Source: Pseudomonas sp. R84 (GTDB taxonomy: Bacteria; Pseudomonadota; Gammaproteobacteria; Pseudomonadales; Pseudomonadaceae). From it: a stretch of DNA of 64,000 bases. The stretch lies in assembly GCF_009834515.1 (NCBI RefSeq), contig NZ_CP019426.1, positions 2,903,501-2,967,500 of the forward strand. The letters are read 5' to 3'. A program made the translations under genes and the position numbers. Of the stretch, positions 59,329-62,070 are shown piece after piece. How positions within the stretch are numbered: position 1 is the first letter of the stretch; every line of letters starts with the position of its first letter. The notes beneath the pieces were generated by a model. That model saw nothing but the letters and a program-made list of their open reading frames with translations. It was not told where the DNA came from and ran no database searches.

Positions 59329-59820
59329 ATGCTCTATCTGTGCCTGAAGTACCTGCACATCATCGCCGCGATCTTCCTGTTCGGTTTCGGCATGGGTTCC
59401 TACCTCTACCTGATCGCCGCCAGCCGCACGCGCAATCCACAAGTGATTGCCCACGTTGCGCGCATGGTCGTGGGCTTTGACACCTGGATCACCACACCGG
59501 CCGGATTCGTGCAGATCATCACGGGTTATCTGCTGATGCGACTTTCGGGGTTGTCGATGAGCACCGAGTGGGTGCTGACGTCGTTGATCATCTTCTTCTG
59601 CGTCGGCTCGTTGTGGTTGCCGGTGTTGCTCCTGCAGAAGCGCCTGTATGTGTTGGCGTCGACTGCGGGCGAGGTGGGGGGCGGACTTGATGAACAATAT
59701 CAAGCGGTTTACCGCAAATGGTTCTGGATGGGCGTGCTCGGGTTTGCCGGGATGTTTGTCATCGTCCTGATTATGGTGACGAAGATGACGCCCCTGCAGT
59801 TGTTCAGCTTGCTGACGTAG
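59329..59820 (+). CDS. DUF2269 integral membrane protein
   Basis: This 163-residue protein has four hydrophobic helices and the DUF2269 pattern LKYLHIIAAIFLFGFGMGSYL. It starts one base after the oxidoreductase stop. The 3' end overlaps the convergent DCC gene by 17 nt. The function is unknown. Confidence 0.82.
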   Translation: MLYLCLKYLHIIAAIFLFGFGMGSYLYLIAASRTRNPQVIAHVARMVVGFDTWITTPAGFVQIITGYLLMRLSGLSMSTEWVLTSLIIFFCVGSLWLPVLLLQKRLYVLASTAGEVGGGLDEQYQAVYRKWFWMGVLGFAGMFVIVLIMVTKMTPLQLFSLLT

Positions 59821-61142: not shown

Positions 61143-61367
61143 GGGGCATATTCCTTGCAGGATGTAGAAAAATTCCCCCTCTCCGGGGGGCGAACGCATG
61201 CTATCACATTGCCTTCATGGTTCAAGGAAGGGGAACTTTTTGCCGGGTGGAATGGGGAAAGATTTATTTATCAGGCGACCGGTCGCTGCTCGACTAAAGC
61301 AGACACCCAATGCAATCTTGATCCCTTTGTGGCAGCAGCCAGAGACCCGCCACAAAGGGATTACCCA

Positions 61368-61730
61368 TCAATCCACCGGCACAACATTATCCAGTGCTTG
61401 ATTAACCGCCAGTTCCCCCAGCATCACCACTTGCGCAATCCCCAGCGCAGTTTTGCGGTGGCCTGGGTCAAGGAGGGCGGCGAAGTTGCAGAGCATTTCG
61501 GTGGCTGAGCTGAGGGACTCGCTGGCGTTGACGAGCAGGGACTCGCTGTCGTAGTCGGAGTTGGCCAGAAACATGGGAGCGTGTTTTTTTTCGCTGCCCA
61601 TGATGCGTTGGGTTGGCGTTAGGTAGTAGTCGAGGGCGCGTTCGGCCGCGTCGTTGAGTGTTCGGGAATCTGGGAATTTGTAGGGTGAAACTGGGTCGGT
61701 TTCTGGTGGGTTGGGTGTGACTTTGAACAT
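61368..61730 (-). CDS. DUF6124 family protein
   Basis: This 120-residue protein begins MFKVTPNPPETDPVSPY and includes LNDAAERALDYYL, the pattern of the Pseudomonas DUF6124 family. I start at ATG 61730, eight bases after AGGAG. The C-terminal half is helical (ESLLVNASESLSSATEMLCN). A very structured region lies directly upstream, which probably forms its 5' leader. The function is unknown. Confidence 0.8.
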   Translation of the reverse strand: MFKVTPNPPETDPVSPYKFPDSRTLNDAAERALDYYLTPTQRIMGSEKKHAPMFLANSDYDSESLLVNASESLSSATEMLCNFAALLDPGHRKTALGIAQVVMLGELAVNQALDNVVPVD

Positions 61731-61769
61731 AGATGACACTCCTGGGAAACAATTGAGGAGCCATCACGA

Positions 61770-61937
61770 TTCGCTACCAAACGAAGGGTGGCGGCCATGC
61801 ACAGGTTGGTAGACCGGTCCAGGAACCCGGCGCGCCCGAGGACGCCCTACGCATGGCCACCATAAAACGGAGATCAAGAGGTACGATCTCTGAGAGAGGT
61901 GCGCGATGCGCCTGGAAATACCGGGCTACCAAACCCG
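61770..61937 (-). ncRNA. Candidate structured leader with two identical hairpin loops (DUF6124 upstream region)
   Basis: Two hairpins show the same 8-nt loop CTACCAAA on the plus strand: TTCG/CGAA at 61770-61785 and CGGG/CCCG at 61922-61937. Between them TTGGTAG (61806-61812) is complementary to seven loop bases, allowing alternative pairing. A stem GGTGG..CCATGC with GCATGGCCACC encloses the middle, and GAGATC/GATCTC follows. The DUF6124 ATG lies 40 nt beyond the first hairpin on the minus strand, so it is most likely a 5' leader, though orientation is not proven. Confidence 0.5.
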
Positions 61938-62070
61938 ATCACTGTTTTTCAGTGACCCGGAAACGATAAAACCCGCGCCCCAGACGCACAAGCCGGCGGA
62001 TTCTGGCGTAGTCGTAGGCAATGGCGCAAGACGTTGTAGCCTTGAGCCGGTAACGCGGCGTGTCTTTTAA
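61906..62070 (+). CDS. Possible 54-codon ORF opposite the structured leader (low support)
   Basis: ATG 61906 is preceded by GAGAGGT and opens 54 codons to TAA at 62068-62070 (starts MRLEIPGYQTRSLFFSDPE). It shares its DNA with the hairpin at 61922-61937. The structured RNA explains the conservation I would expect here as well or better, so this may be a chance frame. A 38-codon frame from 61853 overlaps it. Confidence 0.25.
   Translation: MRLEIPGYQTRSLFFSDPETIKPAPQTHKPADSGVVVGNGARRCSLEPVTRRVF

What the first reader, a model, noticed from the sequence alone, without database searches (positions are those of the whole stretch)
61741..61940. Structured leader with two hairpins sharing one loop and a complementary segment
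Hairpins at 61770-61785 and 61922-61937 expose the same 8-nt loop (CTACCAAA) on different stems (TTCG/CGAA and CGGG/CCCG). TTGGTAG at 61806-61812 can pair with either loop, but not both, as in a kissing-loop or a switch. A long stem (GGTGG..CCATGC / GCATGGCCACC) and GAGATC/GATCTC also fit. On the minus strand it ends about 40 nt from the DUF6124 start codon, so it may be a cis-regulatory leader for that family.
Basis: partly seen in the sequence, partly recalled or inferred. Interest (0 to 1): 0.7.

Follow-up and report, generated by a model that had tools for sequence, protein, structure and literature searches.

The report
Private antisense switches across Pseudomonas genomes
The hairpins are one copy of a phage-type antisense RNA switch (C4 RNA) that this Pseudomonas genome carries about 36 times, mostly in front of genes of one unknown family, and each copy seems to pair best with its own gene, through a code that changes between sister species.

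Summary
The hairpins are real and have a name. On the minus strand, 61867-61784 is a C4 antisense RNA (Rfam RF01695, 78.8 bits), laid out as in phage P1: target hairpin a1, segment b1, C4, target hairpin a2, segment b2 over the Shine-Dalgarno (SD) site, gene. It missed that the C4 P3 loop (b') pairs with the SD of the DUF6124 gene.

The surprise is scale and coding. The genome holds 36 C4 RNAs and 33 DUF6124 genes, 29 of them behind a C4. 184 of 199 Pseudomonas species have a C4. By computed pairing each C4 fits its own target best in 35 of 36 rows; two other species agree (33/38, 15/17). Between two species, b' differs in 14 of 21 syntenic pairs (proteins 91-99% identical); in 12 of the 14, hybrid pairing is clearly weaker. 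Eighteen cassettes share an upstream element found nowhere else in the genome.

A known RNA kind, in an apparently undescribed genome-wide, mutually orthogonal, recoding form. Repression and the function of DUF6124 are inferred, not shown.

The parts
61990..62031 (-). cassette-specific upstream element (class I), candidate operator
   Evidence: pattern found 18 times in the whole genome, 18 of 18 upstream of a C4 cassette, reversed-pattern control 0 (cassettes listed)
61963..61991 (-). predicted promoter: TTGTGC (61991-61986), 17-nt spacer, TATCGT (61968-61963)
   Evidence: read off the aligned cassettes; inferred; the generic sigma-70 scan called no promoter here
61938..61956 (-). first leader hairpin, probably the RNA 5' end (inferred)
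   Evidence: conserved in the cassettes that could be aligned, 33 of 36; part of the c4-a1b1 model
   Evidence: c4-a1b1 match 61969-61918; P1 layout
61911..61916 (-). b1 segment TCCAGG, complementary to b'
   Evidence: changes together with b' in orthologues
61870..61890 (-). hairpin with T-rich tail just before C4 (terminator-like, as in isrK)
   Evidence: 4 such sites in the region, 1.5 expected; a hairpin of at least 5 pairs at this place in 27 of 36 cassettes, mean energy -12.1 against -8.1 shuffled
61784..61867 (-). C4 antisense RNA; likely mature 5' end at the GGU (61861)
   Evidence: Rfam RF01695 78.8 bits; 15 of 22 consensus pairs with two-sided changes over 36 paralogues
61818..61826 (-). 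b' = P3 loop GUUCCUGGA, pairs with the SD (b2) and with b1
61739..61745 (-). b2 site CCAGGAG, overlapping the Shine-Dalgarno
61368..61730 (-). DUF6124 gene, 120 aa
   Evidence: PF19619, 65.8 bits, cutoff 27

Best explanation
This is a C4-type antisense cassette: one promoter, a 5' leader carrying the first target copy (a1/b1), a C4 RNA, a second target copy (a2/b2) over the ribosome-binding site, and a DUF6124 gene. The transcript makes both repressor and target. C4 is probably cut out by RNase P; its b' loop covers the SD and its a' segment grips the a2 loop, so the gene is silent once C4 has built up. The a1/b1 leader, especially if transcription sometimes stops at the hairpin before C4, competes for the same C4 segments and can release the gene. 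The output would be a short pulse, or expression only where C4 is scarce. Pseudomonas has multiplied this cassette to dozens of dispersed copies; many share an upstream element, but each has its own b'/a' code, so each C4 acts mainly on its own gene. Shown here: the parts, their complementarity, its covariation, copy number, orthogonality by computed energy, recoding between species. Inferred: transcription, processing, repression, release, pulse.
For: Rfam match and P1-like layout. 36 C4 and 33 DUF6124 genes in the genome, 29 paired; 77 of 80 kept DUF6124 loci of other genomes have a C4 20-110 nt upstream. Own target best for 35 of 36 C4s (self -21.4, non-self -10.3, sd 3.1 kcal/mol, 0 of 10000 permutations); 33 of 38 and 15 of 17 in two other species. 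Recoding: b', b1 and b2 switched together in window orthologues; b' differs in 14 of 21 syntenic pairs, native -11.2, hybrid -6.9. Coding sequences under purifying selection, median dN/dS 0.08 over 27 pairs. Ends fit RNase P: TGG at the 5' side in 34 of 36, GCC[AT]CC at the 3' side in 34 of 36.
Against: No transcript, processing or repression data could be seen. Folding alone does not settle cis against trans: in the full leader of the window the C4 cloverleaf dominates (P1 stem 0.95), but other cassettes favour a1/b1 pairing or SD pairing. On b' alone 12 non-self pairs are as strong as the median self pair. Four DUF6124 genes had no C4 hit and seven C4s have another or no clear gene. G176 holds two cassettes with the same code. 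In 2 of the 14 syntenic pairs with a differing b' the hybrids pair as well as the natives.
Confidence: 0.78

Rival explanations
1. Purely cis RNA switch: C4 is never released; a'/b' toggles between a1/b1 (gene on) and a2/b2 (gene off) within one transcript.
For: Both partner copies covary with the antisense segments, and the computed ensembles split between cloverleaf, a1/b1 pairing and SD pairing. In Salmonella isrK two such structures of one transcript were reported (PMC4825925, section read).
Against: The C4 ends keep the RNase P-like GG and GCCACC features; in Acinetobacter RNA-seq the C4 part has more reads than its leader, as if processed (PMC5320573, passages). A cis switch needs no orthogonality between copies.
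Confidence: 0.2
2. Addiction or toxin-antitoxin-like cassette: C4 is an RNA antitoxin and DUF6124 a growth inhibitor, kept by selfish spread.
For: Dispersed unit: of the 35 other cassettes 25 match the window cassette by DNA, never beyond 213 nt before C4 nor past the stop codon; the P1 product Icd inhibits cell division and Gifsy AntQ is toxic.
Against: Nothing shows toxicity; the window protein finds 0 of 72,556 plasmid records and 1 of 50,697 phage records; purifying selection fits a useful protein as well.
Confidence: 0.2
3. Remnant prophage immunity regions with no present role.
For: C4 DNA of one own cassette matches 32 phage records; two cassettes encode Bro-N antirepressor-like proteins; outside Pseudomonas four of the C4 loci looked at precede AntA, Rha or Bro-N genes.
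Against: Open frames, dN/dS 0.08, compensated codes and syntenic retention; of five window neighbours scanned none is a known phage regulator: four have no PHROG, one matches a PHROG of unknown function.
Confidence: 0.04

Closest known systems
C4 antisense RNA of phages P1/P7 (Rfam RF01695) with a1b1/a2b2 targets in the c4-icd-ant operon
   Same: Same cloverleaf, same order a1-b1-C4-a2-b2-gene, b2 near the ribosome-binding site (P1 only, P7 not fetched).
   Different: Chromosomal, dozens per genome, mostly a DUF6124 gene instead of icd-ant, a shared upstream element. Here the SD-pairing half (b') is the more variable one (36 of 36 distinct; a' 22 kinds), whereas for P1/P7 specificity is ascribed to a' (PMC5320573, passages).
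Group 1 C4-like sRNAs of Acinetobacter baumannii (PMC5320573)
   Same: Many C4 copies in one bacterial genome, variable loop, RNase P-like GGW start seen in RNA-seq (passages).
   Different: In the passages seen no adjacent target gene family is described; the authors leave targets open. Here each copy but one has a candidate target gene next to it.
IsrK of Salmonella Gifsy-1 (RF01394)
   Same: Short leader RNA ahead of a terminator and a read-through mRNA; the window matches weakly (32.6 bits, cutoff 50), as does P1 (35.1).
   Different: Below the family cutoff; IsrK controls orf45-anrP, not DUF6124.
CI RNA with seqA/seqC of phage P4 (as described in PMC4825925, section read)
   Same: Processed antisense RNA with one complementary site upstream and one downstream of itself.
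   Different: Acts by transcription termination in a phage; not compared by sequence here.

Membership tests
C4 antisense RNA (RF01695) | C4 covariance model over cutoff | tested here: met
   78.8 bits, cutoff 45; stem pairs covary in paralogues, 15 of 22 consensus pairs, the P3 stem not being in that consensus
C4 antisense RNA (RF01695) | a' and b' complementary to an upstream a1/b1 | tested here: met
C4 antisense RNA (RF01695) | a' and b' complementary to a downstream a2/b2 over a ribosome-binding site | tested here: met
   layout as P1
C4 antisense RNA (RF01695) | processing by RNase P to about 77 nt | not testable with these tools
   only end motifs seen, 34 of 36 at each end
C4 antisense RNA (RF01695) | repression of the target gene | not testable with these tools
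   no expression data
c4-a1b1 (RF03163) | model over cutoff | tested here: inconclusive
   45.6 bits, cutoff 46.7
isrK (RF01394) | model over cutoff | tested here: not met
   32.6 bits, cutoff 50
DUF6124 (PF19619) | domain over cutoff | tested here: met
   65.8 bits, cutoff 27
type I toxin-antitoxin system | growth inhibition by the encoded protein, relieved by the RNA | not testable with these tools
   no growth data

The most novel reading that the evidence does not exclude
Pseudomonas runs a genome-wide self-recognition system: dozens of cassettes under a common trigger, each kept quiet only by a C4 with the matching code. Codes diverge fast between lineages through drift and leader swapping, so a cassette that enters a cell lacking its code is expressed at once. 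Carried on many loci, this would mark incoming or foreign DNA, as phage heteroimmunity does, and DUF6124 proteins would be the response.
Probability: 0.15. Interest if true: 0.92.

Novelty: new variant of a known kind. Interest (0 to 1): 0.74.

Why it matters
It would give a Pfam family of unknown function, named in no paper of the held library, its first regulatory logic; turn a textbook phage repressor into a genus-wide chromosomal network; and offer dozens of naturally insulated antisense switches per genome, with their recoding caught between related species. That makes testable how an antisense RNA and two targets change code together without losing control.

Tried and rejected
Kissing-loop riboswitch as a new class: dropped once Rfam named C4. 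Structure of DUF6124: AlphaFold mean pLDDT 73.7, low-confidence start, a helix and a confident helical hairpin; no PDB match with E below 1, so no function claimed. PHROGs: no family for the window DUF6124, for L055, or for four of five window neighbours; the fifth (59329-59820) and the DUF3077 protein match PHROGs of unknown function. DUF6124 outside the genus: matches in 5 of 293 genomes of the order, all five in the own genus (8 of its genomes appear in the listing), none in the other 117 genera. C4 in 24 of 369 genomes of the class, 23 of 272 genera (strict filters, 11 candidates scored per genome). Genus counts stop at 20 per genome because only 20 candidates were scored; by my count of its listing 69 of 199 reach that ceiling. 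A looser b1 test with a 110-nt window gave a weaker signal (own best in 12 of 36) than the placed one (22 of 36); for some cassettes the automatic a1 placement, and so b1, is visibly wrong. One search left out 5 of 43 and 2 of 19 units without a downstream frame, and a twentieth G176 match under the cutoff. One search used a wrong frame for one pair (348774); one search used corrected frames and is the one to trust. One search misparsed b' in L206 and L207. A paper search for orthogonal antisense paralogues listed seven papers, none to the point by title.

Full report
WHAT IS THERE. They lie on the minus strand in a C4 antisense RNA locus: C4 at 61867-61784 (78.8 bits, cutoff 45), c4-a1b1 at 61969-61918 (45.6 bits, cutoff 46.7), and a weak isrK match over 61957-61863 (32.6 bits, cutoff 50). 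The gene behind it is DUF6124. Phage P1, as annotated in AF234172, has the order a1, b1, C4, a2, b2, icd, with b2 ending 10 nt before the icd start; the window has the same order.

HOW MANY. The genome (6.6 Mb, one contig) has 36 C4 matches, 35 over cutoff, and 33 DUF6124 genes; by position 29 pair up. The other seven C4s precede two Bro-N proteins, one DUF3077 protein, two similar small proteins without a Pfam family over cutoff, one 105-aa frame that was not scanned, and one place with only a 24-aa frame. Copies are dispersed, 18 on each strand. Relative G097 has 43 C4s, 42 over cutoff; G176 has 20, 19 over cutoff. Of 199 Pseudomonas species genomes, the own one included, 184 have at least one, 183 over cutoff; 15 have none found. 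A search of named genomes with the window protein kept the best 80 of 516 loci; 77 of the 80 have a C4 20-110 nt upstream, the other three about 500-570 nt upstream. In the 36 paralogues 15 of 22 consensus pairs show two-sided compensating changes; the P3 stem is not in that consensus.

PRIVATE CODES. Every C4 of the genome has a different b' (36 of 36; a' falls into 22 kinds by its first 8 nt). I computed duplex energies for each C4 against each cassette. For b' against the 32 nt before the start codon: self -12.4, non-self -5.4 (sd 2.3) kcal/mol; own best in 26 of 36 rows. With a' against the a2 region added: self -21.4, non-self -10.3 (sd 3.1); own best in 35 of 36 rows and 35 of 36 columns; none of 10000 permutations reaches the self mean. 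Shuffled own loops give -5.7. The upstream copy a1/b1 gives own best in 29 of 36. Two further genomes: own best in 33 of 38 and 15 of 17 rows for a2/b2, 28 of 38 and 14 of 17 columns, none of 5000 permutations. These are computed energies, not measured specificity; on b' alone 12 non-self pairs reach the median self strength, and two G176 cassettes share one code.

RECODING. In orthologues of the window cassette, G000/G055 against G097/G019, b1, b' and b2 differ together, with a 5-nt length change in b', while the a1/a'/a2 letters and most of the coding sequence stay. For G000 and G097 there are 27 reciprocal-best genes; 21 have at least one matching flank; in 14 of these 21 b' differs; native b'/b2 -11.2 against hybrid -6.9; in 12 of 14 the hybrid is weaker by 2 kcal/mol or more, in the other two it is not weaker. 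For b1, over 19 changed pairs of a first run, native -9.7, hybrid -6.3. Over the 27 pairs the median dN/dS is 0.08. In 12 of 37 comparable G097 cassettes the leader's best match in G000 is not the cassette of the gene's best match; in several of the 12 the margin is small or the gene has no close orthologue. The clearest is G097 3696091: its leader is 88% like the window leader and 77% like that of G000 3002568, the reciprocal-best partner of its gene (flanks of that pair not matched). Leader swapping between paralogues is thus one likely source of new codes.

SHARED CONTROL. Upstream, 18 cassettes, the window's among them, share a 42-nt element next to the predicted -35 box. A whole-genome pattern search with up to 2 mismatches finds exactly these 18 sites and none elsewhere; the reversed pattern finds none. 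Eight more share a second element, ten have neither. Of the 35 other cassettes 25 match the window cassette by DNA, never beyond 213 nt before C4 nor past the stop codon, so the cassette is a dispersed unit of roughly 700 bp. A common operator with private silencers is an inference.

MECHANISM. In P1, C4 is cut from a larger transcript and, with its loops, blocks icd/ant expression (PMC5320573 and PMC8198154, passages; the original Citron and Schuster work was not read). In isrK, a short terminated leader RNA binds its own read-through mRNA and switches it on (PMC4825925, abstract and two sections). The window has the parts for both: C4 and its SD target for silencing, a1/b1 ahead of a hairpin with a T-rich tail for release. 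Computed ensembles of the full leaders are mixed: the window favours the free C4 cloverleaf (0.95), others favour a1/b1 pairing or SD pairing. My reading: default silence, with a pulse or release when C4 is scarce or titrated. This is inferred.

WHAT IS KNOWN. Weinberg 2010 (PMC2864571, passages) lists C4 and c4-a1b1 as certain RNAs of Proteobacteria and phages. The Acinetobacter study reports many C4-like sRNAs in one genome without, in the passages seen, adjacent targets. Searches of the held library found 17 papers with 'C4 antisense RNA', 15 listed, none with DUF6124, one with DUF3077, four with RF01695, one with c4-a1b1, and six with 'C4 antisense' and Pseudomonas, none of whose titles concerns this; except for the four papers named above these were seen as listings only. 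Subscription papers are mostly not held, so earlier reports cannot be excluded.

VERDICT. A new variant of a known kind: a C4 RNA by its model and by its target layout (the a1b1 model falls just under its cutoff), apparently new in its chromosomal multiplication with a DUF6124 partner, its mutual orthogonality and its recoding.

Noticed in passing
window 61990-62031 (minus) and 17 further sites in G000: A 42-nt element, in many copies with a GTTTAAA motif further upstream, was found only in front of C4 cassettes: a candidate binding site for a common regulator.
   Followed up: partly
G000:C1:6332109 and 1293249 (L001, L056): Two C4 cassettes encode Bro-N antirepressor-like proteins: a possible bridge between the phage and the chromosomal forms. 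Whether they lie in a prophage was not checked.
   Followed up: partly
G000:C1:315015 and 3667583 (L046, L055): Two C4-linked proteins of about 100 aa, alike (ends LLxxxQQxMLxWKAP) and without a Pfam family over cutoff.
   Followed up: partly
G176:C1:2951197 and 2951978 (L179, L175): Neighbouring cassettes about 780 bp apart with the same protein start but quite different b' codes; by contrast 2061673 and 3006316 share one code.
   Followed up: partly
L188, L193, L197, L202 (other genera): Outside Pseudomonas these C4s precede phage regulator genes AntA, Rha, Bro-N and AntA; several others precede small proteins, two of which were scanned and have no Pfam family.
   Followed up: partly
window 61319-61360: Inverted repeat (CCCTTTGTGGC...GCCACAAAGGG) just after the DUF6124 stop, without a T run; varies between orthologues.
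   Followed up: no
L183 (EU982300.1, 52-405): The only phage-record match to the window protein lies at the very edge of a P. fluorescens prophage record, beside a prtR repressor gene.
   Followed up: no
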